DNA from: Lumbricus terrestris
Taxonomy: Eukaryota > Annelida > Clitellata > Crassiclitellata > Lumbricidae
Assembly (NCBI GenBank): GCA_949752735.1
Contig: OX457039.1
Span: 23,600,830 to 23,664,829, forward strand
Length of the DNA: 64,000 nucleotides
Direction: 5' to 3'
Below, piece after piece: positions 32,132 through 58,381 of the stretch. The notes beneath the pieces are model-generated. The model had not been told where the DNA came from, did not search any database, and saw only the letters and a list, made by a program, of their open reading frames with translations. A program made the position numbers and the translations under genes. Positions within the stretch are counted from its first letter, which is position 1, and each line of letters begins with the position of its first letter.

Positions 32132-32135
32132 CTAT

Positions 32136-33634
32136 TGTAGCGATTTAGGAAATCGCTATTTATTCCTACTTACTCACTTACGTGCCGCATCTTTTGCTAT
32201 AGCTAGATCGTGGTAGTTATTCTTAGCACTGCAGGCTGCAACGCGCTATTAATAGCTTATACGTCGCAAATTACCCTATGCAAATGCGTAGTATTCCGCA
32301 GTATCGGCACGTGAAGGCTTTTGATTGGTTATAAATTGCCCCACGCATTTTTAGCGCCTAGTAGGTGGCCTGTGATTGGCTACAGCAATTCTCTTGGCGC
32401 AAATTTAGCTGTCGATCCGCAGTTGCCGCTTAGATTTGGACAGAGAAGGGCCTGTCGGCAGCCGTGTAGCGAAGGTGATGATTTCAAATGTAGAAATATT
32501 CGAGAAATTCATGCCCTCTGATCGAATTTATGGGAAGAATTTATTCCCCGATAACTGGGCAACTCATCGCTACAATCTGTGTCACCGTTTCGCCCGAGAA
32601 ACGTGCAATTGATGTCTGTTTGGTGACAAATATTTCCGGAGGAAGAAATTGTCAGAAATACATTGGGCCAAATTATCCCAAGGGAGGAACCGCAATTCTT
32701 AAGACAGGGAAGTATTAACTTACGCTAATACCGGATCGAATCTGATAGTGATAATTATTGAAATGCGATAAAGGCTATATATTGTGTTTATTCGATGATC
32801 GGAAATAGAGCAGAATTCGAACACTGATTTAGTTATTGGCTATGTGTCAAATGCGAATGACTAAGGTTAAATTGAAACAGGTTAACCTTAATTCAGGAGA
32901 GTGTTCTCCTTAGTCAGTGAAGTAATTTGGCTGATTGTGATAATTTGTATTCTAGATAAGGCTGTTGATGTTTATAATTAAATTGCATAACGAAACAGTC
33001 TAGTAATTTAAATACAACAATTATGTCTGCACCTAAATCTGAGGAGGTGAGGGAAATGACGCAGATAGAAGAGGATAGAAATCCTTTACTAGTATCTTCT
33101 GAGAGTGAGGCAATTGATTGCTCAGGAGCGCCGCCTATTGTGGTAGAAAGGCTCCTGAATACTATTGAACTAAATCAGAAGCGATATGCGGAATTGGAGG
33201 ATAATACCGAGAGAGTATTAGAGCAGCAGTCCAGACAGATAAGACAATTAGGGGATAGGATAGCAGAGCTCACTGTAGGTATTTCGCCTGACAAACCTGT
33301 TGTGTGGGAGTCGAATCCTAATGAGTACCAGAGTATTGGTACTGTTGCTTCCCTAACGGGAGCCGCTGACATATGTCCTGACTCGGCCCTGGTAGAAGTG
33401 AGAGAAGGACGGAAATACCCGATGACAGAGAGCTATGGTGAAACCGAATCCCTGTTGAGCCGATCAAGGCCCTTTAACTATGATACCTCTGATCCATTAG
33501 ACCATAGGTTAGGCCCACACAACAGTGCGGAGGCTTTCGCAGGGTGGTCACGGAGGCTGTTTCTCCCTCGGCCCTGGTAAGTGATAGTGAGTAGGCAGAC
33601 ACGTGACTCCCAGCTGAAAGGCCAGTCCGTTACA
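32136..33634 (+). mobile_element. Solo LTR (family X) with an ORF inside
   Basis: The 1,499-bp unit starts TGTAGCGATTTAGG, ends CAGTCCGTTACA and is flanked by CTAT on both sides (32132-32135, 33635-33638), an LTR-type 4-bp TSD. The first bases form a 7-bp hairpin, GCGATTT-AGG-AAATCGC. There is no second LTR, so it is a solo LTR left by LTR-LTR recombination. It contains a 185-codon ORF at 33023-33580. The end CGTTACA resembles the 3' end of the Ty3/gypsy LTR at 44279, which supports a related family. Confidence 0.75.
33023..33580 (+). CDS. Coiled-coil gag-like ORF inside solo LTR
   Basis: An ATG-started frame of 185 residues lies wholly inside the LTR. It begins MSAPKSEEVREMTQIEEDRN. Residues ~50-90 (VERLLNTIELNQKRYAELED onward) look like a coiled coil. 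No known domain is recognised. Its position and character resemble the N-terminal gag-like ORFs in the LTRs at 41661 and 44279/55241. The stop overlaps a strong splice-donor match (CCTG|GTAAGT, ~33573-33582), so in a full element this could be a leader exon spliced to downstream gag; this is inference. In a solo LTR it is orphaned. Confidence 0.5.
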   Translation: MSAPKSEEVREMTQIEEDRNPLLVSSESEAIDCSGAPPIVVERLLNTIELNQKRYAELEDNTERVLEQQSRQIRQLGDRIAELTVGISPDKPVVWESNPNEYQSIGTVASLTGAADICPDSALVEVREGRKYPMTESYGETESLLSRSRPFNYDTSDPLDHRLGPHNSAEAFAGWSRRLFLPRPW

Positions 33635-33638
33635 CTAT

Positions 33639-33960
33639 TATGGACTTGATTTGATATAGCGCCGGTGAATAAACTGGTCTCCCTGACGTGGCTTTTGTGG
33701 GTGCTGGGAAATTCTCAAAGATTTGCATTACACTAGCATACATTACATTGTAGGCTGGTGTTGGCACAGTGAATTGCAGGTTGACTGTTTTTTTAGTAGT
33801 TAAGATTGATATTAATTAAGATAACTGCATAATATGTAGGCCTACACGTATAGCCGCTATAGCTGTGGGTAATATTTGCTTTTAGTTTCAATGGTAGCAT
33901 CCCAAGGATTCTGTATAAGAGTCCTTGGTAGCATCCTATATTATATACTCCGGGTTTAAC
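33639..33960. other. No gene recognised
   Basis: AT-rich sequence after the solo LTR with one TAGGCCTAC palindrome near 33837. No coding signal before the LINE fragment that begins around 33961. Confidence 0.45.
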
Positions 33961-34355
33961 TGATAGTTTCACATCAACTTCTATTTAGATATGCTTATTG
34001 ACAACAAAGTTATTCCTCAAGTTTACACGACAAAATTCCTTGGCGTTCATATTGATCAGCACCTAAAATGGAAAGTCCATATAGACGAAATAAGTTTAAA
34101 AAAATCAAAAAGTATAGGCATTATTAAGAGAGTCTCTTACATGCTTCTCTCTCATGTGCTGATCAATCTATATTTCACCCATGGTGTAAGAAGAGATGGT
34201 GTGCGCACTTCTTATACTGGCCATACATTGTTTTTGGCATTTCAGCAGGTGGCGCTGCTGTCCCCAGTTGATGGTTGGCAGCATATACAATAGAGAGCAA
34301 GAAGTACAAGAAACGTTCGAAACATGGAACATATGGACAAGGAGAGGGCAGGAAC

Positions 34356-35378
34356 CAGTGTTTAATCTAGACGTCTCTGGGGGGGGGGGAAGTTCCCCCC
34401 CCAGGATTGACATTTCCCCCCCCAGAAAAATTTGACAAAATGATATTGGTTTTTAGTTACTGTTTTCATCATTGTTTTACATGAAGTGTTATAATATACC
34501 GTGATATTATTTATTATTACATGATTATAATGACATTATTTACTACTATAATATATGATACTATCATGTTAAGATGACACCTTAAAATGCAGCCATTGCA
34601 ATATGGAAATTCAAAAAGTTTCTAATGGGTCACTGAAAAAGTACAGCTATTTTGTTAAGACGACACCTTAAAATGCTGCCATTGCAAGGTGGAAATTCAA
34701 AAAGTTTCTAATGGGCCACTTAAAAAGTACAGCTATTTTGTTAACACGACACCTTAAAATGCTGTCATTGCAATGTGGAAATTGAAACTTTTTCTAATGG
34801 GTCACTGAAAAAGTACAGCTATTTTGTTAAGATGACCCCTTAAAATGCTGCCATTGCAATGTGGAAATTCAAAAAGTTTCTGATGAGGGTCTGAAAAGAA
34901 CAGGTATATTGTGAAGATGACACCTTAAAATGCTGCCATTGCAATGTGGAAATTCAAAAAGTTTCTGATGAGGCTCTGAAAAAGTACAGCTATTTTGTTA
35001 AGATGACCCCTTAAAATGCTGCCATTGCAATGTGGAAATTAAAAACATTTCTAATGGACCACTGAAAAAGTACAGCTATTTTGTTAAGATGACCCCTTAA
35101 AATGCTGCCATTGCAATGTGGAAATTAAAAAAATTTCTAATGGACCACTGAAAAGGTACAGCTATTTTGTTAAGATGACCCCTTAAAATGCTGCCATTGC
35201 AATGTGGAAATTCAAAAAGTTTCTGATGGGAGGGGCACATCCTTCTCCCCATACCCCTCCCCCTAAAGGGGAGGGGTATGGGGATACGCGTCTCACGAGC
35301 ATCCTTCGGACGCTCAATTGTCTCCCCCCCAGAAACCTGAATTCCCCCCCCAGAGGAGGGGGACTAGATTAAACACTG
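34356..35378. mobile_element. 9-bp-TSD transposon, copy 2 (inverted relative to copy 1)
   Basis: Ends are CAGTGTTTAATCTAG and its reverse complement. GGCAGGAAC flanks both sides (34347-34355, 35379-35387), a perfect 9-bp TSD. The interior matches copy 1 in reverse, including the AT-rich segment, but has about eight ~85-bp units instead of about ten. No coding capacity. Confidence 0.88.
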
Positions 35379-35387
35379 GGCAGGAAC

Positions 35388-36860
35388 ATAGCAGGGAGTA
35401 TCACTTGGAACATATAAGGGGCGATGAGGATCAGGTAACATTGCAGGGAACATGGAACGTCATACGGAACACCAGAGAACATAGGCCTAAGCGAATATAC
35501 AACAAAGATCGTGGAACGTAAAGAACATGAAGCATCACAGAGAACATTGTTCAGAGAATATATTGGACGAGGAAGACGGAACATGCATGCATTACGGAAC
35601 ATGCCACAAGGACTGCAGAACGTAAGGAGCATGGAACATCAGGGGAAACATCGGAAACATTAAGGAACATGGAATATGGAAAGTGCAACAAGGAATTGGA
35701 ACACAAGGAACATGGACCATCAGGTGACATAAGGAACATGGAACTTCAGGGAAAATCAGAATCAGTGAAGAACAAGGAATGCGGAACACAAAGAACAGGG
35801 AACATCACGTAACATAAGGAACATGAAACATCACATGGAACACCAGAGACATCAGAAAACAAAAGACGCGGAACAAACAACAAGGGCCGTGGAACATAGG
35901 CAATATACAACAAGGACAATGGAACACAAGGAACTTGGAACATCACGGGAGAATGAGAAACATATAAGAACACGGAATGTGGAACATGCAACAGGGTCTG
36001 TGGAACGTAAGGAACATGGAACATAAGAGGGAAGATCAGAACCATTAAGATACATGGAACACGGAATGTGGAACAAGGATTGTGGAACACAAGGAACATG
36101 GAACATCAGGGAACGTAAGAAACATGGATCATCACTGGGAAACAGAACACGGAAAGTGGAGCACGCAACAAGGTCCGTGGAACGCAGGGAACAAGGAACA
36201 TAAGAGAGAACACAAGAAACATTAAGGAACAAGGAGCCCGTAATGTTCAACAAGGAATGAGGAACTCAAGGAACATCAGGGAACATAAGAAACAAGGAAC
36301 ATCGCGGGAGCTTCAGAGGTATTAAAAATACGAAACGCGGAACACGCAACAGAGACCGTGGAGCACAAGAAACATGGAACACCTGAGGGAACATCAGAAA
36401 CATTAAGGAACAAGGAACGCGAAACATAATTGAGGAACATGAATCATCAGGATAAACATCAGAAATATTAAGGAACATATGGAACGCGGAATATGTAGCA
36501 AGGGCTGTGGGACATAAGAAACAGGGAACACCAGGGAACATGGAACATCACATTGAACGCCTGCGACATTAGAAAACAAAGGGCGCGAAATAACAACAAG
36601 GTCCGTGGAACATAAGGGATATAAATAATTAAGGCCCATGGAACATAAGGTACCTGGTATATCACAGGGAACATCAGGGAACAAGGAACACAGGGAACAC
36701 GGAACATCAATTAACAGGGAACAGAAGGCGCATCACAGAGAACAAGAGAACACGGAACATCGATAGAAACATCAGGGTCAGAGGACATGGAGAACATTGG
36801 AACACAGGGAACACAGCATCACATGGAACAGAGAACACGAAACACAGGAGAAAAGGAGAC
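35388..36860. repeat. GGAACAT-based minisatellite, ~1.4 kb
   Basis: The tract is built from variants of GGAACAT joined by short linkers such as CAGGGAACATAAG, GGAACACGGAAC and GTGGAACATAAGG. Higher-order spacing is irregular. Long minus-strand frames rich in Val-Pro-Cys-Ser and Met-Phe are by-products of the repeat. It lies inside the hAT element next to 9-bp-TSD copy 2. Confidence 0.9.
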
Positions 36861-36978
36861 AAAGAGCAAATGAAACAGAACATAGCAAAGATAATTTGTG
36901 TCGCCCTCCTCCTTCGTCCAGACATGAGACTGGCATTAGGGAACGGACGTGCAGTGAAGGAGTATAAGTATGTATGCC

Positions 36979-37312
36979 CATGGGTGGAGACCTAGGGGGG
37001 ACGGTCCCCCCCAATGAAAGTGTTGGGGGGGACGGCCCATGCATTTGTCCCCCCAATGTTTGAGCGTCAAGACCTTTTTGGGCGGCGAAAATAGACAATT
37101 TCGTTGAGATTTTGGCCGGATGACTAAAAAAAAAAAGGTCATCACCTTTTTAAATTTCGTTGAGATTTTGGCCGGATGACTAAAAAAAAAAAAAAGTCAT
37201 CAACTTTTTGGGCGACGAAAATAATTTTTTTGTCCTGAGATCGTCAGAAATTTTTCTGCAAATCTCGCGTCTTTCCGTCCCCCTCAATTCTCGGCCCAGG
37301 TCTCCGCCTATG
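36979..37312. mobile_element. 334-bp hAT-type MITE
   Basis: Starts CATGGGTGGAGACCT and ends AGGTCTCCGCCTATG, inverted repeats with two differences. TGTATGCC flanks both sides (36971-36978, 37313-37320), a perfect 8-bp TSD. The interior holds two copies of TTTCGTTGAGATTTTGGCCG followed by GATGACTAAAAAAA (~37098 and ~37156). Same terminal family as 8794-8942 and 59637-61687. Confidence 0.85.
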
Positions 37313-41660: not shown

Positions 41661-42335
41661 TGTCGCGAAGTCCCCCACTCGTCCGAAAGTAACCTGTACT
41701 TCCGGCCTCATGGGTAACTCGCCTCGCTGTAGAGCCCTAGGGTCTTTCCCACGATTAAGGCCACCTTTTAGCGCCGGGTCCATAATCCGTGCGATCTCGT
41801 AAGACCGGTTTCCCCTTTTATCATATTCATGATAATTAACCCGGGGCTGTGTAACCAATCGTTCACTTCTTCTTAGTCCGCTCGTATCTGCATTCTGTGG
41901 TACCAAAGGATGGCTCGAGTGTATCGGCACGGCAACTGTATTAGTTGCAACTACAGACCTAGTGTAGTCAGGGTTCGGTGGGGATTCTACAGCGAGTTGT
42001 CCTTCAAGTGTATCAAGGCGACACATAATTTCCCCTACTTGAGATCTTACTTCGCCGGCTTGTGACCTCATTTCCCCATGAAGGGCACCTACTTGTGATT
42101 CAATCTGTCCATGAAGCGCACCGACTTGTGATCTCACTTCACCCACTTGAGATTCGATCTGTCCATGAAGTGCACCGACTTGTGATCCAATCTTGGAGAA
42201 CTTATTATCCATCCGGTCCATCATCAACTCAAGGATCGAACTGACTCGTGACCTATCAGAGGCACGTGACCTTCTACCGTCGTCTTCGTTCGGGCGCTCC
42301 ATAAATACCGGAGAGGTAGGTCGACTCACGCTCAT
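41661..42335 (-). CDS. N-terminal gag-like ORF inside solo LTR (cut off by LTR end)
   Basis: The ATG at 42335 starts MSVSRPTSPVFMERPNEDD. Residues ~25-110 form heptad-like repeats with the unit SQVGALHGQIESQVGEVRSQ, probably coiled coil. Later come GLRRSERLVTQPRVNYHEY and QVTFGRVGDFAT at the LTR end. The RRSERL block is shared with the gag of the element at 44279-57773 (LRRSERLAHKDPISY), linking the two families. The frame enters host LINE DNA after 41661, so the protein is a fragment. Confidence 0.6.
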
Positions 42336-43329
42336 GATCAGAATGACAACTCACTTTGTTTCTTAATTAATCTAATTTATTCACAACTAAGGTACAGATC
42401 TAAACTACAGAAGTCTTAGCTTTAACAACCGACAATCGTTCACAACTTGGAAAAATTATCATAAAGTCCCAAATTCACTTAATGGCGATTAATTCCCGTT
42501 TTCCCCATTTTACCTTAATTTCCACATACCTTAACTTGGGCACGGAAGCTGGGAAGACAAGGTTTTAATCCACCGAAATGACGCAAGTATATGTGTAATC
42601 CACGCGATGATTTGCTGACGGTGCAACTTATACTCCACGATTGCGCTAAGATAATTTCTCGGTAATCCAGTGAAATAGGTATTCCAAATGATATATCCAA
42701 GCTTCGCGTAGTTGCCGCAATCGAATTAATCCAATTTGACTTAATATTCCCCGATTCAGACCGATTTTCTTACATAAATCGCAAATTCACCAGAGCTCTT
42801 GTCAAATCGACTTATCGCCTCCGTGGCCAGGACAAGACTGAATTTCAGACACGCGCTGACGCGAGATTGGCGCCGAAACCCGCGATCCAGACAAAGGCCT
42901 GCTTAAGGTATAGGGCTTGGGTTTTTCCGCTAACGTTAAAGTATACAAACCACTTTATCATTAAGCCTCGCTTTGGTCTAGAAAGCCAGACAACCTATGT
43001 TTTAACATGGACCACTTTATCATACAGCCTCATTTCAGTTCAGACTAGGCGGCAAATTTTACTGCTTACGTCAGCCTGTTCGGGCGGTCCCTGCCTTAGC
43101 GCACGGCCTATGTCTAAATGTCCTGCTGCGTATCGCTGCGTATCTCTGATTATTATTAGATATTACTGCGTGTTTAGTGTCAACAGGTCCTTGAGTGCAT
43201 TTCACGGCGAAAACATTATATTAATAAATTTAGCGTTGCGGGCCCTCCCGGTGTATTTTAATCAGTGTAATCGCCATTAATATTAATATAATAATCGCAA
43301 TTAAATCGTAAAATGTAACATTCGTTACA
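41661..43329 (-). mobile_element. Solo LTR (family Y) containing the start of gag
   Basis: A 1,669-bp unit bounded by TG...CA (TGTCGCGAAG at the left, TTCGTTACA at the right) with ATGA on both sides (41657-41660, 43330-43333). On its coding (minus) strand it starts TGTAACGAATG and ends CTTCGCGACA. No second LTR is present, so it is a solo LTR inside the RTE LINE. An ORF starts at 42335 and runs leftwards straight through the LTR end into LINE sequence; in the full element it would have entered the interior. Confidence 0.75.
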
Positions 43330-43442
43330 ATGACGGCATGCGGTGAAGGAAGGAGAAGACGCGGAAGACCAAGGAAGAGGTGGATGGATGAAGTACAGGA
43401 AAAGTCTGGAATGAGCTTGGAAGAGCTAAGAGAGGCGACAAT
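43330..43442 (+). pseudogene. RTE LINE: C-terminal piece
   Basis: Reads MTACGEGRRRRGRPRKRWMD and EVQEKSGMSLEELREAT, the RTE C-terminus. It is interrupted by the large hAT element at GCGACAAT (43435-43442) and resumes at 58382-58466, which holds the remaining ~25 codons and the 3' end. Confidence 0.85.
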
Positions 43443-44278: not shown

Positions 44279-46811
44279 TGTAACGCCCGCCCCCACCGTC
44301 ATCCCCGGAGTCGCCACTCCCGGATCATCGTACGGTAAGGGGGCCGCGTGCTGTTGTGGGTCATGGTCCTGAGATATGGATCGAGGATAAGAGGAGGTGA
44401 CTCTCGGGTTCAAATCCAACCGATGAAATGATTGCCAACCATCTCGGCTGCCCAGTTCTCTATATGAGATTGGATCCTTGTGGGCCAGACGCTCACTTTT
44501 GCGCAGCGTGCCCAGGTGGGTGAAGTCTTTAGGCCTAGCGCCTAAAGACTCTGCCAGACTGATGGTCGACTGGTGAGGCACGTCCGCGAAGGTAATAGCG
44601 GTGGACGTCCGTTCAGGGTTCAAACCCACAACAGATCTGGGACTGGCGATGCCTCGAGCCGCTCTAAGCGTGTCACAACCTCCGTTAGCACCTCTCTAAC
44701 ATTAGAGTGGACGGCCGAAATTTCGTCTCTTACATTTGATTGTACTGCAGAGATTTCTTCTCTGACATTTGATTGTACTGCAGAGATTTCTTCTGTGATA
44801 TTTGATTGTACTACAGAGATCGCTTCTTGTGTTTCCCTAGCGTGCATCTGCATAGCTTCTTGTGAGGACCTAGCGTTGAGCTGGATAGCCTCTAAAACAA
44901 TTTCCATCGAGGAAGGCGGTCTTGAAGGCTGTGCCGGGGTCGCAGCTCTGGAGTCCTCCATAGTGTTTCACAAATTATTCCTATTTGTATTTCTATCACT
45001 AGCAGTGAACAAAGTCAGTAATTCCAGTAATGTTTCTTATTATTGTCATTCAGTTAACTCTTCAAACAACAATAGTTACAACTTATGCAATCATCAAAAA
45101 CAACTTAAGCAATCAAGAAATACTACTATGGCAAACAACACATAGACCAGAGTATCATCTATTGTTATTCCCGTTTCTTCCCAGGCCAATTTCGTCAATA
45201 GCCCAAATTTCTATCATCGATCGCTTTTTAAACTAAACGTACCTCGATGTCAGTGGCGGGACATAAGGCTGAGAGAGGATGCGCGGAAACCGGAGACATA
45301 CGGAGTTCCCGGATAGGCGTCGAGGAAGTATAGCGCCGAAAGGAGTCCGAAAAAGATTGACTCCCGTAGATTGGCGACGATATCCGCCGAACGAAAAACA
45401 ACTCGTCGAACTATATATTTATATATCGATCAATTGACGCCCATGTGCAAACAACTTTCAGGCTATCGCCCAAGACACAACCGAACTTCAAGACGACGAT
45501 AAATTCGCTCAGCAGTAACAAATCGACGCAAAACTGATACATATTATATTCCTCCGATCGCAGAAAGAATCGCCGACAGAATCCGAAAGACTTTCAATAT
45601 AAATCGCAACGGCGCATTTTAACTTCAACGTCGAATTAAAGCAACTCCTCACTGAACGCTTCTCCACTCTGTCAAGATCCACATTGTCGTCTGCGCCTTC
45701 ACGATCCGGCACGGTCTTCTGCGCCTAATACGTCTTCAGGATCCGGCACGGTCTTCTGCGCAACTATCAACAGTGCGCGGGTCTTATATAGAGCCAACGC
45801 CCTGACGTCATGAAACTGCGCATTTAAAACTGCGCAGTTTAAATATTACGCAGCAAGAAATACGGCCAACATCCGCCCAGCTGTGTCTTCTACGCAGCAA
45901 AAATTGCTGCCAAGATCACTCCTACGTGTCTTTGTAACTACCATCCTGTCGGTCTGAGAGGATCGGTCTTTCTCTGTCTCTATCTCTCTCTCTCTCTATG
46001 CCCATTAAAACGCGCCCTCTGACGACACACTGTGTCTTCTCTTTCCTTTCCAGGCGTCGATTCGAACGTCGCAATTTCAACTCTTGCTAGCCGTACGAAA
46101 CAATCGACATGGTTGACGACGGCCGCCTCTACAGCGTATCTTCTTCTCCGTCCGTCTTTGTATCCATCTTGGTATCTCTCTTTGTGATAGCGACTTCGCC
46201 TGGTGCCATCGCGTATATACAACTATAGTATCGGTCCCAGCGGTCGATTGTATCAGCGTCTATGTCTGTTACTACAGAGCCTGTCTGTGCGACTATGTCT
46301 GATGTCGCTCCCTTTCTCTCGCTGGCCGATTCCCGACTATGGTAAGCGTGTGAAAATTTAGCGACTCAAAGACGACGGATTGCTGATCGCTCAGATAGCG
46401 ATCACCGCGAACGATTAAAATCCGACAATTGCAGCAGCAACGTAGGCCTATCACCGCGTCGACACCAGACGTCGCGAACGATTAAAATTCGATACGGCGA
46501 AAGGCTTATCTCGTCGCGACACGCGACTATAGCAGAAGTATCGATGACCGCTCATGCAAGCCATTAAAACCCGGCGACAGTCTTATCTCGTCGCGAAACG
46601 CGACTATAGCAGAAATGCCGATAACCGCTCACTTAAGCCATTAAAACGCGCTGGCTGCGATCCAAAATATATTAGTCGCCGACCGCCGACGCACCGATCG
46701 TCGCAAGATGGCGCGCCGCTACGTAGGCCTACCGCGTCGAACGGCAATGCATTACCGACCGGAAGTAATTAAAACCCGATGGCAGAAACCCAAATTATAT
46801 AAGTCGTTTCA
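44279..46811 (-). repeat. 3' LTR of the Ty3/gypsy element
   Basis: Same length as the 5' LTR. It carries a complete copy of the short coiled-coil ORF (44961-44620) and the first ~117 codons of the long gag-pol frame (from 44629), which then runs out into flanking DNA at 44278. Confidence 0.9.
45782..45810 (-). promoter_or_regulatory. TATA box and CRE-like site in 3' LTR
   Basis: On the minus strand TATATAAGA (45790-45782) lies 12 bases downstream of TGACGTCA (45803-45810), the palindromic CREB/ATF site. Spacing and orientation fit a core promoter for minus-strand transcription about 0.8 kb upstream of the first ORF. The same arrangement is in the 5' LTR. Function is inferred. Confidence 0.55.
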
Positions 46812-46832
46812 CTATCCTCCCCCCAGCCTTAT
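46812..46832 (-). promoter_or_regulatory. Polypurine tract beside 3' LTR
   Basis: Minus-strand sequence GGCTGGGGGGAGGATAG ends directly at the LTR, the expected position of the plus-strand priming site in LTR retrotransposons. Confidence 0.7.
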
Positions 46833-49510
46833 TTCGGAATTTATTTAAGTGGAAAAATACATTCAGAAATGCGGGAATAGGTCGATACTCTGGTTTTTAC
46901 ATCAAGAGTTCAAAATTAAATGCAAGGATTAAAAATATACAAAGAACAGACTTAACAACGATAGCGCACAAAGTTAAGCAATAACAGTCCAGCACTGATC
47001 ATAGATCATCGCACAACTATCATTTCAAGCAAGACAAACACTAATTGTTACTGAATTTATATAGCTCCTCTCTTCAAACGTCCAGACAGCGATGTAAACA
47101 TTATTACATGTTACAAGCTTATTTTAGTTCAGTTACGCACTAAGAATCCGACGGCAAACATTGACTCAGGAACCTACGACACAGCTACAAAATCCATAAG
47201 TCTATATTACCGTTACAACGGGTCATCTTAACAATAGGCCACCTATGGCAATTATCATCGAGACTCCTTTAGGCGTTTCACTGTAGGAAAAAGTCTACAT
47301 TTAAAGACACTCTAAGCAGTTGAACCTAATTCTCGGATCCCATTAATCTCAACATAGCACTGCTATCACATCCAAACAGATTTCCGGTAAATTATCAGAG
47401 ACTGTGCACACAGCTTAAATCTCTACATAGCTTATGATTATTATAACTATCTCATAGGCCTTCATCAATGTTTAACCGTAAAAGACAAAGCCTAACTTTA
47501 TCTTAATAATAATTATGCAATTATACCTAGGCCTGCTTTCAACATAGCATATTTCGGTAAGCCTACTAGTATGGCTATGCAATCCTAAATTAAAATGCAG
47601 CCGATTATGCACATCAAAATTAAAATAGACAGCAATTACATATTTACACTCCTCACATAACCGTGTATAAACTTAGGCCTATATTCCTACATAGACATGA
47701 CTGAGTCCAGTAAACCGTATATTATTTAATAGGCTTCATTGTCCAATGCAAAATATAATATAACTACGATAACAAGGCTTAACTGAATCAACTAAATATA
47801 CTGCAAAACGGTCGTTGGTTACATATGGTCTTGCGCTGTGTAACTGTCTGTAACAGTAGTGTACAGCTTGACCCATAAATCATGAATCATAGACCATTAT
47901 AATAAGCGATCACCATGATTTTAATAGGAGATCTTAGCCTAAAGCAAATCAACAGTTAGGCCACTTTAGTCTACTATTAGTCCTATGCATTAACTTAGCA
48001 TCATCGCATCATCATTCATTCATTCATTCTTGTAATCCAATGTTAATCCTCTGCACAGGGAAACCACACAGTGATAACTAACATCCGGGAAACAATCATG
48101 TGCCAATGATAATTAGACGAGACCCTCGTTACATGGCTCCTCCCTCCACTCTTCCATCATATCTGAAGTCGGGAAGCGAGGTCTGCCAAGAATCTTTCGT
48201 ACATGTACGCCCACGTGCAAGATAAACGAAATCGTAAAATTACTAGGTCAGTAAATAAGTCGTAGCAAAACTTTACTAAGCTAAGATTCTTGAAAAACCT
48301 TACATGGCACGTTTAGACTACATCCACCGTAGTTAAAATAGCAAATTAAATAGCCAGTCTTATTCATCATACACACAGAAATCCTAATTATTATTATTAT
48401 TATTATGCCTAGCCCTAATTAATATTATTAGGCCACCAGTTTAACAATGGCCGACACTGCAAAATTATTACAGGAATTACATGGACTAATCATTATTCTT
48501 AGCAGCAATGTATCAACAGCAAAATTACATTATCGATTATGCCTAAGTTTAAGCTACTAGCACAAGTAGTGTAGGCCTACACGGCAAAACCTTATATAAT
48601 ATATAGTCCCGACAGAACCTAGAAAATACAATTAAGCACCATATGGGTCTCAGGGCATTCATTTAGCGCCTCTTTTAAAACAATGAATAATATTATTATA
48701 CATACATATCTCTGCGTCAGATTTAAACTAAACGAAGCTTCTTATAACACTTATACCTTATTATTAAAGGGAGACAAATAATATTATATATATCCTGTCA
48801 CTTATTAAACCAGCGCTTTAGCAGAAGCTTAATCATGCCTTGGAACATTATGGGGCCTACAAAATATTTATTTAGCGCCTCTTTAACTAATTAATTGTGA
48901 GTTTATGTACTTAATATATATATATAAATGCTATACGGCCTCAACTAATATGCACCTATTCACTGCTGAACATAATATTATTTCAGTAATACAAACTGCT
49001 AATCATGTAGAGCCTTACACGGAACTTAAGAGCATCAAAAATTAACTTTATAAATCTCTTAATATTATTTTCAAACGATATATAGTAGGCTACGAAACAT
49101 AGGCCTAAGGCTTAAGGCTACTATTGCCTCACAGCATTACCTTACCTAGCCTCCGAACAGGTCATCACTTAATTAGAAAAGGTAAGGCTCGTTAATCTAT
49201 CATCAGGTCAGGTTTAATTATTTATATAGCGCAATGCAAAAATACTGACAATCAACATTCTGTCTATAGCAAGGCAATAGTAAAAGTGTCTATCGCGTGA
49301 ATGCAATTCAATACGAATGCAAATCTCAATCACAGCTGCAAATGTTCATCAGGCAATCTGCCATACTACTATTAATGCACAATTTAAGCAGTCACAAGCA
49401 GGCATGAAAATTCTTTCATATGTTAACTAAATCGTTTTCATCAATATCAAACTAAAGAAGTGTTAAACAGGCAGTCTCCTGTCATTTTCAACTTACGGCC
49501 GCAACGATCT
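46833..49510 (-). other. Non-coding interior between pol and 3' LTR
   Basis: About 2.7 kb of AT-rich sequence without any frame of note on either strand. There is no envelope-like signal peptide or transmembrane ORF. It contains scattered TAGGCCTA palindromes and short AT repeats (ATTATTATTATTATTATT near 48388). Confidence 0.65.
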
Positions 49511-51469
49511 TTACGGACAGTACCGGGCCGGCTTCTTAATGGTGCGGCGTGGTCTCGATAATTCCACCGGGGCGTCGTTGGTGTCCTCGGTTCCCGGAAA
49601 CTCGATCGGATCCTGCGGTTGAGAGTCAGGTTCGGCCCAACCTGACGGAGGTTCTCCCAGATACGGTTTCAGTTTATCCACGTAGACAAGCAGCGCTTGT
49701 GATCTAGCGGACTTCTGGATCCGGAATAAGACCGGACTCACTTGCTCCAGGACCTTGTACGGTCCACAGAACCAACTGGCCCACTTGTCCTTGACGTGAA
49801 CGCGCTTGCGGGGCCAGTAATACCAGACCCACTGTCCTTTTGTGAACGATGGCTTCCTGACTCGAAGATCGTACCGGAAAGCCCTACGAACGGCTTGTTT
49901 CTGCATGCATTCTCGAGCTAACCGAAACGCCTCTCGCATCTCATCTGTCCTTCGTTGGATGTAGTCATCCACTGATAACGGATGACGGTTCTGGTTGCAG
50001 TCCCCGAGTACCAGATCGATTGGTAGGCAGTTCTCGCGCCCAAGGCAGAGCCGATTCGGCGTGAATCCAGTACTTTCGTGTTGGCTTGCCCTGTAGGCTC
50101 CCATCACCCACGGCACATGAACGTCCCAGTCTTTCTGATTTTGGGAAACTACTTTCCCCAGCATTGAATTTAAAGTTCTGTGCAGTCGTTCAACCATTCC
50201 GTTCGTGCTCGGCTTGTATGGTGTTGTCCGGATTTTATCAATTTGCATAAGTCGACAAAGATCACGGAACAAGGCGGCCTCAAAGCATGGGCCCTGGTCG
50301 GTCAGAATCTGTTTTGGACAGCCTAGTCTAGGAATCCACTGATCCATCAACATCCGGGCCACAGTCGCTGCTTCTTGGTTGCGGATCGGATAAGCCTCCG
50401 CCCATCTACTAAAGTGGTCGATCACCGTCATAATAAAGCGATATCCACGACTGGATACCGGATGAGGTCCTGTAATGTCGATTCCGAGACATTCCATTGG
50501 CTCACCGACGGCCATGTCCTGTAGTTGTCCCTGCCTGGGTGGTTTTCCTCTGATATACCGTGCGCAGTTATTGCAACGCCTCAGTTGTTGATATACCTGA
50601 TCTCTCCATCCAGGCCAGTACGCTCTCTGTTGAACTTGCGCCGATGTGCGTCGGACACCAAGATGTCCCCCTGACATTCCTTCATGCGCAAGTCGGATTA
50701 TCGTTAGCCGTCTTCCGACTGGTGGTATCAGTTGGTACCGAGCAGGTTCACCATCGGAGTTCAACCATTCCCTGTGTAACAGTCCGTTTCTAATCAGCAA
50801 CTGCGGCCACTGATGGACTAACGTCTTGATCATGGCACTGCAACTCCGTAGTTCATCTCCGGCTGGAATCTCGGTCGATTTCACCATTCGTTGCACAACC
50901 CAGTTCAAATCAGGATCTTGTCGTTGCTCTTCTGCGATGACGACCGGGTCCCAATCCGCAATTTCAGACAGGCCAGGTTGAGCTGGTTGACGGCGTTCTT
51001 GAATGGCACCGACAAGGTTCGGCCTCCGAGACAGGGCGTCAGCATTTTGGTGTGCCGTTCCAGCTCGATGTTGTATCTCGAACTCGAATTCTTCCATTAC
51101 CGACAGCCAACGAGCTTGTTGTCCAATCGGTAGGGGTGTCCTTCGTAGCCATTGGAGTGCTGAGTGATCAGTTCGTAGGATGAATTTCCGGCCCAGAAGA
51201 TAAGGTCTGTACGCTTTGAGAAAATGTATCACCGCCAGAAGTTCTCTTCTAGTTACGTCATAGTTTTGTTCAGCCTCCGAGCATACTCGGCTTCCGTAGC
51301 AAATCACCCGTTCTTGTGAATCCTGAACCTGTGAAAGCACTCCACCAATTGATTGGCCTGATGCGTCAGTATCCAGTATATATGTCCCGGTATCGTTTGG
51401 AAGCGCTAAAATAGGCGATTCCGTGAGGCATTCCTTGAGTCTCTGAAAGGCGCTCTCACATGGGTTGCT
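49511..51469 (-). pseudogene. Pol downstream of the stop: RNase H and integrase
   Basis: This part is in the same frame as the upstream gag-pol and is separated from it only by the stop codon at 51470-51472. RNase H motifs come first (LLAVIHFLKAYRPYL, ILRTDHSALQWL). Then the integrase zinc module (HEGMSGGHLGVRR, CNNCARY), the catalytic core with all three acidic residues (CLGIDITGP, LTDQGPCFEA, NGMVERLHRTL) and a C-terminal GPY/F-like segment (WFCGPYKVLEQV). It ends RRTIKKPARYCP. The ORF is ~609 residues from the first methionine at 51340. Apart from the upstream stop it appears undamaged. Confidence 0.85.
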
Positions 51470-54400
51470 CTAGTCAAATTTATAGCCCTTCCTGGTCATT
51501 TGGTGTAGCGGCCGTGCTATCTGAGCGAAACTCGGTACAAATTTACGATAGTAGGAGCATAACCCGAGAAATGCTCTCACATCTTTGACTTTCCGCGGCG
51601 TAGGCCAGTCGCGGACAGCTTGAATTTTTTCCGGATCTGTATTTACTCCATGTTCACTAACCACGTGACCTAGGAACAACACCTTTTTCTGTAGTAGCTT
51701 ACACTTTGATGGCTTCAGTTTTAGATTAACCCCCTCCAGGCGAACTAGAACTTGTTCCAAACGAGCCAAATGGGTTTCCAGATCGCTAGCGAAGACAATG
51801 ATATCGTCGAGGTAGATTAAACAGATCTCAAAGTTTAACCCTGCCATGACCAGATTCATCATCCGTCCAAACGAAGCCGGAGAATTGCAGAGCCCGAACG
51901 GAAGTACTTTAAATTGAAAACTCCCGCGTCGGGTGACGAAGGCGGTCTTGTGTTTATCCCGAGGATGAACAGCCAACTGATGATAACCGGCCCGGAGATC
52001 GAAGGTGCTGAACCACTTTGCTTCGCCGAGTGCGTCCAGGCTCTCGCTAATCAGTGGAAGTGGGTAGGCGTCCTTGCGCGTCTTGGCGTTCACCGCTCTG
52101 TAATCAATGCAAAAGCGGGGGGTCCCGTCTCGTTTTTGAACCATGACCACGTTGCTTGCCCACGGCGATAGTGACGGTTCAATCAATCCTTGATCCAGCA
52201 TCGCCTGAACTTGCTCGTCAATAATTGGGAGCAATGAGAGCGGTTGTCGTCGCAGCGGCTGACGAACAGGTGCTTCATTGCCCGTGTCGATCTCATGTCG
52301 TAGAATGTCGGTGAAACCTAGATCCCATTCACCGAGAGAAAAGGCGGCGCGACGATTCATCAGAACTTCCCGTAGCCGACACTGTACTTCTGGTGGAACC
52401 TCCTCCGCAATGTTCAACCATAGTGGACTCAGCACTACCTCTGCATCTTCAGCGGTAATACGGTCTTTCACTTCAGTCACCATGGCACACCCTGCAGCGG
52501 CACTATCGTCTTGATGGACCTCGGCTACTGTCACTTCTTCCAAAGGGCATTGCACCCCTTTCGGCAATTTAATCACCCTGTCAGTCGGATTCAACACTCT
52601 GATGGTGATATCGATCGCTCTTTCCGGTAGAAGCGTACTGGCGATTACGAGACCCGATGTCAATACATGTGGTGGTGTAGCCCATTGACTCTTGGTCGGT
52701 TTCAAGTCTGGAAGTATTGCATACACCTCTACGTTCATTTCTGACAATGCCGGGATATTCACGTGCTGTGCAGCTGCGATCTTCCGGCAAATTGCCCTCC
52801 GCCCTTGACTGACTAAAGGAAATGTGCGGCCTTGTAGTACGATAGTTCCATTCGAAAGACTCACCAGAGCTTGCTGTTCATTCAACCACCCGAGTCCTAG
52901 GATCATTTCACTGACTTGAGCGGTTACTAAACAAGGAACTTCGAACCTGTAGTCGGCCGCACGACATCGTAGGACAGTTTCTCCAAGTACTTGTATAGCT
53001 GTACCATTCGCCGCGGTTAACAGTTGTGTCGATGCCTCTAGGTCCTTCTGTTTCACCAGAGATGCAGGTACTAGCGACAACTCGCTCCCAGTATCTACCA
53101 AGGCCAACACGTCTTTACCATGGACCTTCAGAGCCAAATATGCATTCGTACCACCTTGCACATGGTATACGTTAGCTGTTTCATTCGGGGCCTCATTTGC
53201 TCGTACTTCCGCGGCTTGTCGCTGGGGGCAATTGCGCACAAGGTGATCGGTCGCGGAACATTCAAAGCACCGGCGCGCGGCAGTTCCAGCTTCCACTTCC
53301 ATCTCCATTCGTGGCCGACGTCTGCACTCCGAGCTGAAATGTCCGAGCTGATGACATAGGAAACACCGTAGAGTTCCCCGTCCGTTACCTCTATTGTTAT
53401 TCGTCCCTTCGTTTCTAGTTGACTCGTTCTGGCCTCTCCATGGCCCACTATTGTTGTATCTGACCTGTGGCGCCGACCATGGTTGTCGCTCTTTCTTCTG
53501 TAATTGCTCCACTTGTTTCCTCATTTGCTCCATCTGCCGTTCCAGAACCTTCACTTTCGAATCTTCTTCCTCCTTGATTGCATTGACTCGTCCATGACGT
53601 CGGTCGTTCTGTTCATGGCCACCAGCTTCGGCTTTCTGATAACCGTCCAGTCGCATCGCCACCTTGTAAGCTTCATCCAATGATTTTGCCTCTCGCTCAC
53701 GGATCTTAAGAGCGAGAGTTCGATCTCTGAGGGCATCCAAGAATGCTCGAACGGCAATTGCCTCGCTGTGGACAGTCGAGGAGCCCGGATACGCTCGTGA
53801 TGTCAACCGGCGAATGTCATCCACCACCGATCCCATATCTTCATCAGGCTTCTGTTTTCTGGTGCTGAGCTGTGTCTGGAACAAAGCTTGTTGCTCGGCA
53901 TTTCCATAACGCTCGCGGAGTCGCTGGACCAGAGCCGTCCAAGTATCCAAACTGTCTGCGTTTGTCTCACTTAGCAAATGGGTCGCCGGTTCAACCAGGG
54001 AAACCACTAGTTGGTTCAACCTCTCATCGTCCGTCCAGTCATTGTTCTTTGCGCAAACGGAGAACCTGCGTAAGAATGTCTCGACATCAGTCCTTCCGCT
54101 ATAAGAACCAAGTTTCAGCCATTGCTTTGGCTTGTGAGGAGAAGCCGATGACTGTTTCACCTCGCCAACTTTAGGTGTTGCAGACGCGGTCGGTTCAGGC
54201 TCCTTCGCGGTTCCACCTAAGCTGGTAGACGGTAATTCCAAGTCGCCGGTCGTTTGTGTCGCAACGGTGGTCATCGGGACAGTTCGGATCAGGCCAGCGG
54301 AAACATTGGTAGACGCAGATGTTTTATCGACGCCAGTTGTTTCAACTCTCACCGGAAGTGTCGACTTCAGTAGGGCTGAACGAGGCACTTCGATGTCACG

Positions 54401-55591
54401 GCCGAATCCAAAACTCTGCGCACCGAGGCAGGAGCTCATTCTCGCCGATTCCACGATGGGTGGCCACCGAGGAAAGATGTCGTCGCTTGGTCGAAGCGGG
54501 TCGGGGAAGCGGAGCGGGTCGAGCCAAACCCGGTTGTCGATGTTTTCGTAGAACGCGCTCGGAGCGTGGGTCGGAGCAGGCATCCGCGAAAGATATGAAT
54601 GGTCGGGAAGAGCGTACGGTTGCATTCGGTCGACTGTCGCCATCACCACAGGTGCGGGTCGGAGATCGGGTCGAGCGTAGCCTCGACTGACCAAGGTTGA
54701 AGTTGTTCGGCCGTCGAAAGCGCTGTCGGCCATTGACCGGTAGGTGGGTCTTCCAGACGTGGATTGCAAAATGTCGCCCAGGTTCGTCGTCATTTCCGCT
54801 CGCGGTTGGTCGACGTAGGCGAGCGACGCTGGCATCCTCCATTGCGGATTAGGTCGAGGATGCTCGACGTGAGGAAGCGACGAGGAGGTCAAAGGCATGG
54901 GATTGACCCTATCACCCCCCTCCCGTGGCAATCTATTAGCGATCGGTTTGGTTGTTTCTACATGTCGAACCTCTGGTTGCTGTGCTGTTTGCATTCTTTT
55001 ATCAATTATTCTAACAGTCTTGGGTCTAGAGTCCATTATTTTACTGATCTCAATGTCTACACTGCCATCATCAGACATAAACTCTATGTTATCATCAAAT
55101 TTCGTTAGTTTCCTCACACTTTCCTCCATTCTTTCAAAAGACATTGCCATTTCACCTCTTCCAGCATAATCAGCTTCCTCCTCCAACCTATCATCACCAA
55201 AATCTCGAAAACCAATTCGTACCTCACTTCTAGTACCAATTGTAACGCCCGCCCCCACCGTCATCCCCGGAGTCGCCACTTCCGGATCATCGTACGGTAA
55301 GGGGGCCGCGTGCTGTTGTGGGTCATGGTCCTGAGATATGGATCGAGGATAAGAGGAGGTGACTCTCGGGTTCAAATCCAACCGATGAAATGATTGCCAA
55401 CCATCTCGGCTGCCCAGTTCTCTATATGAGATTGGATCCTTGTGGGCCAGACGCTCACTTCTGCGCAGCGTGCCCAGGTGGGTGAAGTCTTTAGGCCTAG
55501 CGCCTAAAGACTCTGCCAGACTGATGGTCGACTGGTGAGGCACGTCCGCGAAGGTAATAGCGGTGGACGTCCGTTCAGGGTTCAAACCCAC
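51470..55591 (-). pseudogene. Gag-protease-RT frame, ending in an in-frame stop
   Basis: A 1,373-codon frame. Its first ~117 codons lie in the 5' LTR (GTG at 55591 is only the first listed start; it overlaps the upstream ORF in the -1 frame). Order: RRSERL block (~44-50), long low-similarity region, capsid-like domain (~495-660, GSYSGRTDVETFLRRFSVC), two zinc knuckles (CFLCHQLGHFSSEC ~740, CFECSATDHLVRNC ~775), protease (ALVDTGSELSLVP ~829) and RT (RFCIDYRAVNAKT ~1158, CLIYLDDIIVFA ~1259). The frame stops at TAG (51470-51472) just before RNase H. All motifs seen are intact. Confidence 0.88.
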
Positions 55592-55923
55592 AACAGATCT
55601 GGGACTGGCGATGCCTCGAGCCGCTCTAAGCGTGTCACAACCTCCGTTAGCACCTCTCTAACATTAGAGTGGACGGCCGAAATTTCGTCTCTTACATTTG
55701 ATTGTACTGCAGAGATTTCTTCTCTGACATTTGATTGTACTGCAGAGATTTCTTCTGTGATATTTGATTGTACTACAGAGATCGCTTCTTGTGTTTCCCT
55801 AGCGTGCATCTGCATAGCTTCTTGTGAGGACCTAGCGTTGAGCTGGATAGCCTCTAAAACAATTTCCATCGAGGAAGGCGGTCTTGAAGGCTGTGCCGGG
55901 GTCGCAGCTCTGGAGTCCTCCAT
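55582..55923 (-). CDS. Short coiled-coil gag-like ORF within 5' LTR
   Basis: ATG at 55923 starts MEDSRAATPAQPSRPPSS. Residues ~25-105 repeat AISVVQSNITEEISAVQSNV-type heptads and are probably a coiled coil. The frame ends with TGA at 55582-55584, overlapping the long gag-pol frame by about 10 bases in the -1 direction, so gag may be reached by frameshifting or the two may be separate proteins. A complete copy exists in the 3' LTR (44961-44620). No known domain recognised. Confidence 0.6.
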   Translation of the reverse strand: MEDSRAATPAQPSRPPSSMEIVLEAIQLNARSSQEAMQMHARETQEAISVVQSNITEEISAVQSNVREEISAVQSNVRDEISAVHSNVREVLTEVVTRLERLEASPVPDLLWV

Positions 55924-56743
55924 AGTGTTTCACAAATTATTCCTATTTGTATTTCTATCACTAGCAGTGAACAAAGTCAGTAATTCCAGTAATGTTTCTT
56001 ATTATTGTCATTCAGTTAACTCTTCAAACAACAATAGTTACAACTTATGCAATCATCAAAAACAACTTAAGCAATCAAGAAATACTACTATGGCAAACAA
56101 CACATAGACCAGAGTATCATCTATTGTTATTCCCGTTTCTTCCCAGGCCAATTTCGTCAATAGCCCAAATTTCTATCATCGATCGCTTTTTAAACTAAAC
56201 GTACCTCGATGTCAGTGGCGGGACATAAGGCTGAGAGAGGATGCGCGGAAACCGGAGACATACGGAGTTCCCGGATAGGCGTCGAGGAAGTATAGCGCCG
56301 AAAGGAGTCCGAAAAAGATTGACTCCCGTAGATTGGCGACGATATCCGCCGAACGAAAAACAACTCGTCGAACTATATATTTATATATCGATCAATTGAC
56401 GCCCATGTGCAAACAACTTTCAGGCTATCGCCCAAGACACAACCGAACTTCAAGACGACGATAAATTCGCTCAGCAGTAACAAATCGACGCAAAACTGAT
56501 ACATATTATATTCCTCCGATCGCAGAAAGAATCGCCGACAGAATCCGAAAGACTTTCAATATAAATCGCAACGGCGCATTTTAACTTCAACGTCGAATTA
56601 AAGCAACTCCTCACTGAACGCTTCTCCACTCTGTCAAGATCCACATTGTCGTCTGCGCCTTCACAATCCGGCACGGTCTTCTGCGCCTAATACGTCTTCA
56701 GGATCCGGCACGGTCTTCTGCGCAACTATCAACAGTGCGCGGG

Positions 56744-56772
56744 TCTTATATAGAGCCAACGCCCTGACGTCA
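56744..56772 (-). promoter_or_regulatory. TATA box and CRE-like site in 5' LTR
   Basis: Same as in the 3' LTR: TATATAAGA on the minus strand with TGACGTCA (56765-56772) just upstream. This copy would drive the element's own transcript, with the short ORF starting about 0.8 kb downstream. Confidence 0.55.
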
Positions 56773-58381
56773 TGAAACTGCGCATTTAAAACTGCGCAGT
56801 TTAAATATTACGCAGCAAGAAATACGGCCAACATCCGCCCAGCTGTGTCTTCTACGCAGCAAAAATTGCTGCCAAGATCACTCCTACGTGTCTTTGTAAC
56901 TACCATCCTGTCGGTCTGAGAGGATCGGTCTTTCTCTGTCTCTATCTCTCTCTCTCTCTATGCCCATTAAAACGCGCCCTCTGACGACACACTGTGTCTT
57001 CTCTTTCCTTTCCAGGCGTCGATTCGAACGTCGCAATTTCAACTCTTGCTAGCCGTACGAAACAATCGACATGGTTGACGACGGCCGCCTCTACAGCGTA
57101 TCTTCTTCTCCGTCCGTCTTTGTATCCATCTCGGTATCTCTCTTTGTGATAGCGACTTCGCCTGGTGCCATCGCGTATATACAACTATAGTATCGGTCCC
57201 AGCGGTCGATTGTATCAGCGTCTATGTCTGTTACTACAGAGCCTGTCTGTGCGACTATGTCTGATGTCGCTCCCTTTCTCTCGCTGGCCGATTCCCGACT
57301 ATGGTAAGCGTGTGAAAATTTAGCGACTCAAAGACGACGGATTGCTGATCGCTCAGATAGCGATCACCGCGAACGATTAAAATCCGACAATTGCAGCAGC
57401 AACGTAGGCCTATCACCGCGTCGACACCAGACGTCGCGAACGATTAAAATTCGATACGGCGAAAGGCTTATCTCGTCGCGACACGCGACTATAGCAGAAG
57501 TATCGATGACCGCTCATGCAAGCCATTAAAACCCGGCGACAGTCTTATCTCGTCGCGAAACGCGACTATAGCAGAAATGCCGATAACCGCTCACTTAAGC
57601 CATTAAAACGCGCTGGCTGCGATCCAAAATATATTAGTCGCCGACCGCCGACGCACCGATCGTCGCAAGATGGCGCGCCGCTACGTAGGCCTACCGCGTC
57701 GAACGGCAATGCATTACCGACCGGAAGTAATTAAAACCCGATGGCAGAAACCCAAATTATATAAGTCGTTTCAGGTCTTATATAATTATAGCCTAGATCT
57801 GTCTGCAGTTATTCGTTAGGATACTAGGCCTATTATGCTGTTGGCCTAATGGTCCAGAAGCAGCAGAACTGAGTTGCTGAATTTGATACGTCAAGAAATT
57901 ATGATTGTAATAATAATTATATTCATTTTATTGAAACTTTCAACCACTCTTGTAATCAGCACTGAAATAATAATCTGTAATTTTGCTTAGATCCCAGCTT
58001 ACAATGCTGCATGTGGCCTATCATTACAATGTGGAAACTGAATAAGGAATTATTATAATTGCAAGAACAATCATAGAAGTCTTAGACTAGGCATGTCATC
58101 ACTGCGAATGTTGAGCAATTTTGTAAAGATGGCAGCTTAAAATGCAATGTGAAAATTCAACAATTTCTGACTTCATGGAGGGACACATTCGGACATTCCT
58201 TTCCCATAGCCCTCCCGTCTCGGCGCTACACGTCTCGAGCAATCGACCGACAAAAATGTGTGTGTAAATACTTGTTCTCCGTCCCCAGAAACCTTGATTT
58301 GGCTAGAGTAGATTAGACTCGTGGATATGTTTAGGATTAGGGTTTGTGCCTAGGGCCCCAAAACTCCTTAAAACGGCCCTG

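What the first reader, a model, noticed from the sequence alone, without database searches (positions are those of the whole stretch)
32136..57773. Three LTR families carry an N-terminal gag-like coiled-coil ORF inside the LTR
Seen directly: the solo LTR at 32136-33634, the solo LTR at 41661-43329 and both LTRs of the element at 44279-57773 each contain an ATG-started ORF with coiled-coil-like heptads. In the last two the gag frame crosses the LTR end, so the first ~117 codons of the long frame and the presumed primer-binding site are coding. The RRSERL block is shared between the 41661 and 44279 families. In typical Ty3/gypsy elements gag starts downstream of the primer site. This may be a distinct lineage in which each new 3' LTR or solo LTR re-exports a short ORF.
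Basis: partly seen in the sequence, partly recalled or inferred. Interest (0 to 1): 0.78.

Follow-up and report, generated by a model that had tools for sequence, protein, structure and literature searches.

The report
Retrotransposon gag gene starts inside LTR

Summary
All three LTRs are real (TG..CA, perfect 4-bp target duplications). In copies from the window's own genome the LTR frame from ATG to LTR end is open in 25 of 30 B, 19 of 20 C and 9 of 22 analysable A loci (28 fetched). In all 11 C and 10 B loci fetched with internal sequence it reads on through the primer-binding site (IGTRSG or similar); four of those B loci stop within 36 codons. The site matches the 3' end of a host tRNA-Leu(UAA) gene 17/17 in intact copies. 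One B copy stays open for 1,887 codons after its LTR. dN/dS of the LTR-encoded part is 0.27 (B) and 0.36 (C), off-frame about 1-1.9; A is weak (0.70). So this is the N-terminus of one gag-pol frame (long helix of 11-residue repeats, then RRSERL), not an extra ORF; metagenomic relatives share it. Two A solo LTRs end 60 and 63 nt beyond an old LTR end plus old primer site, in frame: evidence that a displaced primer site extends the LTR into gag. The window C copy is broken (frame change, in-frame stop). Expression from solo LTRs is untested.

The parts
32136..33634 (+). Family A solo LTR, TG..CA, TSD CTAT at 32132-32135 and 33635-33638
   Evidence: 48 match rows in own genome
33023..33580 (+). 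LTR-encoded gag N-terminal ORF of family A (this copy disrupted near its end; open copies run to the LTR end)
41661..43329 (-). Family B solo LTR, TSD TCAT (minus strand)
41661..42335 (-). LTR-encoded gag N-terminal frame of family B, 225 codons, open to the last base of the LTR
   Evidence: dN/dS 0.27
44279..57773 (-). Family C full-length element, TSD GACC
55241..57773 (-). 5' LTR of C, 2533 bp
44279..46811 (-). 3' LTR of C, 2533 bp, 4 differences from the 5' LTR
55582..55923 (-). Coiled-coil part of the LTR-encoded gag N-terminus, 113 aa, 5' LTR (frame changes before the RRSERL part in this copy)
44620..44961 (-). Same ORF in the 3' LTR
51470..55591 (-). Frame with RRSERL block, crossing the LTR end and primer site into capsid-like gag, CCHC knuckle, protease and RT
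55222..55238 (-). Primer-binding site, inside the gag frame; 15/17 to host tRNA-Leu(UAA); C copy L061 17/17
49511..51469 (-). RNase H and integrase frame, same frame as RT after one in-frame stop
46812..46824 (-). Polypurine tract before the 3' LTR
   Evidence: read directly
56746..56752 (-). TATA-like box in the 5' LTR of C (putative promoter)
   Evidence: inference only
14680..25844 (+). Contrast: another gypsy-like element in the window (three LTRs, two internal regions); gag ATG at 15438 lies about 285 nt downstream of the LTR

Best explanation
A, B and C are related Ty3/gypsy-type LTR retrotransposons whose gag-pol frame starts inside the LTR, upstream of the primer-binding site. Shown: real LTR ends, an open frame through LTR end and primer site in B and C, tRNA-Leu complementarity, codon-level constraint in B and C, and one 1,887-codon frame continuing from the LTR into pol. 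Inferred: genomic RNA starts in the LTR upstream of this ATG and is translated through the primer site. Minus-strand strong-stop DNA primed by tRNA-Leu necessarily includes the gag N-terminus and carries it into both new LTRs, so every 3' and solo LTR inherits it, ending at a fixed codon phase. Likely origin (my odds 0.6): the 3' end of an LTR is set by where the primer binds, so a primer site displaced into gag pulls the gag start into the LTR; two A solo LTRs show such a step directly. The module probably serves Gag multimerisation (inference).
For: TSDs on all three window LTRs and on 8 of 8 full-length B elements tested. Frame open ATG to LTR end in 25/30 B, 19/20 C, 9/22 A. Frame continues through the primer site in 11/11 C loci with internal sequence (open at least 70 codons) and 10/10 B (5 with intact LTR frame and over 200 further codons). 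Primer site 17/17 to host tRNA-Leu(UAA) in L061 (C) and L012 (B), 30/30 in L037. 1,887-codon open frame from the first internal base of a B copy. dN/dS B 0.27 (0.21-0.34), C 0.36 (0.28-0.45) against off-frame 0.99/1.89 and 1.15/1.61. Indels over all 30 B LTRs: multiples of 3 in 16/21 in the ORF part, 3/28 upstream. GTRSGV 3 times in 22,587 gag-N residues of 88 relatives, 0 in 131,287 other residues. L079, DNA of relative P0007, has a different tRNA-like primer site also in the gag frame. Displacement: L054 and L056 end (TSDs GTAC, AGTA) 60 and 63 nt beyond an inner GTTACA end followed by a primer-site remnant, with the frame kept over both steps.
Against: No transcript or protein data. 11, 3 and 11 upstream ATGs lie between assumed starts and the gag ATG in A, B, C, so leader translation is unexplained. 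The window C copy is frame-broken and has an in-frame stop. Family A constraint is weak (0.70, 0.55-0.93; off-frame 0.85/0.90); no intact A pol was found, its L081 internal region is degenerate, and of A only L043 and L047 show sequence beyond the junction that is not a flank, neither fully intact. B primer sites vary: only 4 of 10 keep all 17 bases, and L016 and L019 match 13 and 14 of 17. Three B copies stop 7 codons after the primer site.
Confidence: 0.9

Rival explanations
1. The LTR frame is an independent accessory protein (for example a self-restriction factor or RNA-export factor) that happens to abut gag and is the main product of solo LTRs.
For: The module stays open in 8 of 9 TSD-flanked solo LTRs of B; coiled coil plus basic block could act in trans. 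Ty1 restriction by a Gag-derived factor is a precedent in kind (abstract start of PMC7055915 in the listing).
Against: No stop between module and gag in intact copies; frame fused through the primer site in the B and C loci with internal sequence; relatives P0001 and P0006-P0009 have one frame. Open solo LTRs may simply be young, and in A only 3 of 12 TSD-flanked solo LTRs are open.
Confidence: 0.12
2. The LTR ends are misplaced and part of the internal region is a chance duplication.
For: Unusually long LTRs (1.5-2.5 kb); in L054 and L056 my first end assignment was indeed 60-63 nt short.
Against: 4-bp TSDs at three window LTRs and eight full-length B elements, TG..CA ends, primer site 2 nt after the end, polypurine tract before the 3' LTR.
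Confidence: 0.01
3. The ORFs are chance frames in LTR DNA.
For: The 113-codon ORF of the window C copy alone is within chance (178 of 2,000 shuffles); A constraint is weak.
Against: A and B frames exceed all 2,000 shuffles each; low dN/dS in B and C; in-frame indels in B; profile match between B, C and metagenomic gag.
Confidence: 0.01
4. The LTR part is a spliced first exon of gag, joined to the rest by splicing rather than read through the primer site.
For: Many upstream ATGs suggest leader splicing; a GTAAGT stands near the A ORF end in the window copy and in L007 and L043.
Against: The frame is continuous without splicing in intact copies; in other A copies the same place reads GTAACT, GCAAGT or the like.
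Confidence: 0.04

Closest known systems
Ty1 of Saccharomyces cerevisiae (Ty1/copia)
   Same: GAG AUG lies in the LTR and the primer-binding site is coding: R starts at nt 241, 5' UTR is 53 nt, LTR 334 bp, and primer-site changes were made so as to keep the GAG amino acids (passages of PMC5454406).
   Different: Only about 14 codons in the LTR (my arithmetic from those numbers), initiator tRNA-Met primer, Ty1/copia domain order (recalled); here 193-257 codons in C, tRNA-Leu and Ty3/gypsy order.
Ty3/gypsy (Metaviridae), Ty3 of yeast as nearest solved RT
   Same: Protease-RT-RNase H-integrase order, RT best match Ty3 RT (4ol8, E 1.1e-62), TG..CA, short TSD.
Diaspora, soybean Ty3-gypsy (PMC1142308, passages)
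   Same: 2,524-bp LTR and a single 1,892-codon gag-pol frame.
   Different: gag starts 873 bp downstream of the LTR, primer tRNA-Asp; LTR not described as coding in the passages seen.
Cer1 of C. elegans (PMC10309623, passages)
   Same: Animal Ty3/gypsy element with unusual coding use of its genome (CERV).
   Different: Changes at nt 957 and 1175 are called 5' UTR and lie beyond its 492-bp LTR, so its gag seems to start outside the LTR (inferred from passages).

Membership tests
Ty3/gypsy (Metaviridae) | Domain order protease, RT, RNase H, integrase | tested here: met
   Pfam order in window C frames; same order by tblastn in B copy L080
Ty3/gypsy (Metaviridae) | RT closest to Ty3-type RT | tested here: met
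   4ol8 and Ty3 Gag-Pol are the top two of 178 matched sequences
Ty3/gypsy (Metaviridae) | LTRs TG..CA, short TSD, tRNA primer site, polypurine tract | tested here: met
Ty3/gypsy (Metaviridae) | gag start downstream of the primer site (typical, not strictly defining) | tested here: not met
Ty1/copia | Integrase before RT | tested here: not met
   integrase frame lies after RT
Retrovirus / errantivirus | env gene between pol and 3' LTR | tested here: not met
   longest sense frame between pol and 3' LTR of the window copy is 73 aa, stop to stop; B copy L080 has about 960 nt after pol
A named Ty3/gypsy clade | RT tree placement with named references | tested here: inconclusive
   RT tree of 119 rows lacks named clade references; C and B fall in a 27-row clade, support 0.98
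Ty1-like coding primer site | gag ATG in LTR and primer site in gag frame | tested here: met
   works like Ty1 in this respect but is not a Ty1/copia member

The most novel reading that the evidence does not exclude
Because each LTR holds a leader, a start codon and a coiled-coil Gag N-terminus ending at a fixed codon phase, solo LTRs act as mobile promoter-plus-exon cassettes: they make truncated Gag that restrains related elements by co-assembly, and sometimes fuse in frame to host genes. L024 shows a possible case: a solo LTR whose frame runs on for 120 codons through C2H2 zinc fingers of the interrupted gene. The LTR itself grows stepwise, a ratchet in which each displaced primer site takes more of gag into the repeat (L054, L056, L043).
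Probability: 0.2. Interest if true: 0.82.

Novelty: new variant of a known kind. Interest (0 to 1): 0.64.

Why it matters
In this Ty3/gypsy lineage the LTR is coding: annotation that assumes non-coding LTRs and gag after the primer site would truncate its Gag, and repeat masking would hide it. It gives a natural case in which tRNA priming and protein coding constrain the same bases, apparently with two primer choices across relatives, and shows an intermediate of LTR growth into a gene. It makes testable whether the many solo LTRs of such families express truncated Gag, in the manner of known Gag-derived restriction.

Tried and rejected
Splice-donor idea for A (GTAAGT near 33577): dropped; it is also in L007 and L043 but altered in other A copies, and open A copies read on to the LTR end without splicing. 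Programmed frameshift in C: dropped, since 19 of 20 fetched copies are one frame. Poly(A) signal just before the ATG (AATAAA in B, ATTAAA in A, 46 nt upstream in the window copies) would make U5 equal the coding part; AATAAA is kept in the 25 open B copies but no such signal is in C, so it is left as a hint. Search with the N-terminal part of the window C frame gave no hit, as did three of five viral-contig scans; one search found only P0008 and P0006. Literature: ten searches listed no Ty3/gypsy element that I recognised as starting gag in the LTR; I opened passages of four papers, the rest were seen as listings; open-licence PMC only, so this is weak evidence of absence. A fourth family, L084, has an RCSERL block and a possible primer site TGGCGACGAG inside an open frame, but the search to map its LTR end did not complete, so it is not counted. 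The indel count was biased (open copies only) and was redone on all 30 B LTRs.
Full report
1. The observation. Each begins TG and ends CA and is flanked by a perfect 4-bp duplication: A CTAT, B TCAT, C GACC. The two LTRs of C are 2,533 bp and differ at four positions. Each LTR has an ATG 612 (A), 675 (B) or 683 nt (C) before its end. In A and B the LTR end coincides with a codon boundary of that frame; in C with a boundary of the RRSERL frame. The ATG frames of A and B are longer than in any of 2,000 dinucleotide shuffles each; the 113-codon ORF of the window C copy is not exceptional by itself, 178 of 2,000.

2. Relatives in the same genome. The window's own assembly is held (1.056 Gb, 331 contigs, unnamed). 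Searches gave 48 match rows for A, 42 for B and 166 for C. Only the best 40 candidates were scored each time and one copy can give several rows, so these are not copy numbers. I fetched 28 A, 30 B and 20 C loci. Six A loci had no recognisable LTR end and were left out of counts. The frame from ATG to LTR end is open in 25 of 30 B, 19 of 20 C and 9 of 22 A loci. The loci are the best-scoring or chosen ones, which favours young copies.

3. The frame crosses the LTR end. In all 11 C loci with internal sequence the frame runs ...GVT|IGTRSG... and stays open for at least 70 codons (L059-L069). In all 10 B loci with internal sequence it reads through the primer site: L012, L016, L019, L022 and L038 have an intact LTR frame and more than 200 further codons; L014, L025 and L026 stop 7 codons on; L034 has a broken LTR frame but 386 open codons downstream; L037 is broken on both sides. 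Of A, L043 and L047 show VT|IDTRSEV and VT|IGTRVSG; L047 leads into a degenerate gag-pol (L081), and L043 meets stops after 23 codons. In one B copy the internal region is open for 1,887 codons from its first base (L080); with 218 LTR codons (L012) that is a single frame of about 2,105 codons, close to metagenomic relatives of 1,977-2,123 (P0001, P0007-P0009). The LTR ends of eight full-length B elements are fixed by matching TSDs, 8 of 8 tested.

4. The primer site. In 10 of 11 C and 4 of 10 B loci the bases after the LTR are AT then TGGTACCAGAAGTGGGG; the rest differ at one to four of these 17. ARAGORN finds a tRNA-Leu(TAA) gene in this genome with that 3' end (L082). The match is 17/17 in L061 (C) and L012 (B), 15/17 in the window C copy, 13/17 and 14/17 in L016 and L019 (B), and 30/30 in L037. 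So the bases that pair with the primer also encode IGTRSG.

5. A displaced primer site. While rechecking the A loci I found that L054 and L056 are solo LTRs whose TSDs (GTAC, AGTA) stand 60 and 63 nt beyond an inner GTTACA end. The inserted stretch begins ACTGGTACCAGTGAGTGGGG or ACTGGCACCAGTGAGTGGGG, a primer-site remnant, and itself ends in GTTACA. Both steps are multiples of three and carry no stop. L043 has at least six units of the kind GTTACA plus primer-like site in a row after its first LTR end. I read these as successive downstream moves of the primer site, each taking more of the gag frame into the LTR. This fits the rule that the primer site sets the LTR's 3' end; that it explains B and C too is inference.

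6. Constraint. Pooled dN/dS for the LTR-encoded part is 0.27 for B (25 sequences, bootstrap 0.21-0.34), 0.36 for C (19 sequences, 0.28-0.45) and 0.70 for A (9 sequences, 0.55-0.93). Off-frame readings give 0.99 and 1.89 for B, 1.15 and 1.61 for C, 0.85 and 0.90 for A. Only pairs with at least 15 differences were used (36 of A, 287 of B, 165 of C) and pairs are not independent. Over all 30 B LTRs, gaps are multiples of three in 16 of 21 cases in the coding part and 3 of 28 upstream. A is thus weakly constrained or older.

7. The module. In C the repeat unit is 33 nt, 11 residues. AlphaFold2 on an alignment of 14 of the 53 open copies (10 C, 4 B) predicts one helix, residues 18-122, with block pLDDT 93-97 for residues 21-110, then a low-confidence tail holding RRSERL (mean pLDDT 64.8). 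RRSERL is invariant in that alignment. Profile comparison links B and C (94.5%, E 7.6e-8), B and C to four metagenomic relatives (95% each); A gives no match to B or C (0.1% each) and a weak one to those relatives (19%, E 0.0012). Coiled coils can inflate such scores. A's kinship rests on its junction and on capsid, protease and integrase matches of L081 to C at 45-51% identity.

8. Outside this genome. Pol of C finds 1,638 proteins among 7,992 scored candidates, 120 listed, best 56% over the whole region. P0006-P0009 begin with a coiled coil after an acidic stretch and have RRSxRL in one frame with the capsid. GTRSGV, the translated tRNA-Leu primer site, occurs three times (P0002, P0039, P0044) in 22,587 residues before the capsid of the 88 listed proteins with a capsid match and never in 131,287 others; shuffles average 0.006. 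P0006-P0009 share GDEDG instead. DNA for P0007 (L079, an IMG/VR contig that closes on itself with a 123-nt overlap) reads ATCACA|AT|TGGCGACGAAGATGGGATTCGAA there, a site with a T-loop-like end, in the gag frame. I recall this as near the 3' end of tRNA-Ser(GCU); the check did not complete. The contig does not show separate LTRs, so its LTR end is inferred. In an RT tree of 119 rows C and B sit in a 27-row clade (support 0.98) with P0001, P0002 and P0006-P0009; P0039 and P0044 lie outside it. A search with P0006 scored 26 places in this genome, each with an open frame of 1,536-2,164 aa, so the wider lineage is well represented here.

9. Type of element. Window C has capsid-like gag (Retrotrans_gag E 9e-4, below its curated cut-off), a CCHC knuckle, protease, RT, RNase H and integrase in that order; RT is closest to Ty3. 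There is no env-like frame. The window C copy has a frame change between the coiled coil and RRSERL, present in both LTRs, and an in-frame stop between RT and RNase H. A second gypsy-like element in the window (14680-25844) starts gag about 285 nt after its LTR, so the layout is not shared by all such elements here.

10. Mechanism. Strong-stop DNA primed downstream of the gag start copies the gag N-terminus to both ends. This is established retrotransposon biology (recalled) applied by inference. Transcription start, poly(A) site and translation are not known: putative TATA boxes leave 3-11 upstream ATGs before the gag ATG.

11. Precedent and novelty. Ty1 has the same layout over about 14 codons (PMC5454406 passages). 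Ten literature searches listed no Ty3/gypsy case that I recognised, in an open-licence library only. I rate this a new variant of a known kind. B solo LTRs keep the frame in 8 of 9 TSD-flanked cases, A in 3 of 12; whether they make protein is open.

Noticed in passing
L024 (own genome C8:52078418-52080118, family B solo LTR, TSD AATG): The LTR sits in a C2H2 zinc-finger gene; its gag-N frame runs on in frame for 120 codons through zinc fingers, an accidental or real fusion frame. The flanking zinc-finger frames do not match each other across the empty site.
   Followed up: partly
L054, L056, L043 (own genome, family A): LTRs that contain an older LTR end and primer-site remnant (60 and 63 nt steps), and an array of at least six such units after the first LTR end of L043.
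   Followed up: partly
14680-25844: Gypsy-like element with three near-identical LTRs (about 475 bp) and two internal regions 99.9% alike in tandem; gag with long charged coiled coil and an integrase frame; no RT frame noticed in the ORF list, integrase frame running into short repeats.
   Followed up: partly
L025, L026, L021 (own genome C7:29194139-29207219): Family B also shows an LTR-internal-LTR-internal-LTR arrangement with outer TSD ACTC.
   Followed up: partly
[quoted passage not shown] function unknown.
   Followed up: no
L037 / L083 (own genome C47:32378-32404): Primer site of 30 bases identical to the tRNA-Leu complement, as if freshly copied from the tRNA.
   Followed up: partly
B LTR pairs spaced about 5.7 kb: A short B variant (internal region about 4 kb) coexists with the 6.6-kb one; possibly non-autonomous. 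Some stop 7 codons after the primer site.
   Followed up: no
58848-59288: Exon-like ORF resembling a mitochondrial carrier (SLC25-like, recalled, not searched) next to the element.
   Followed up: no
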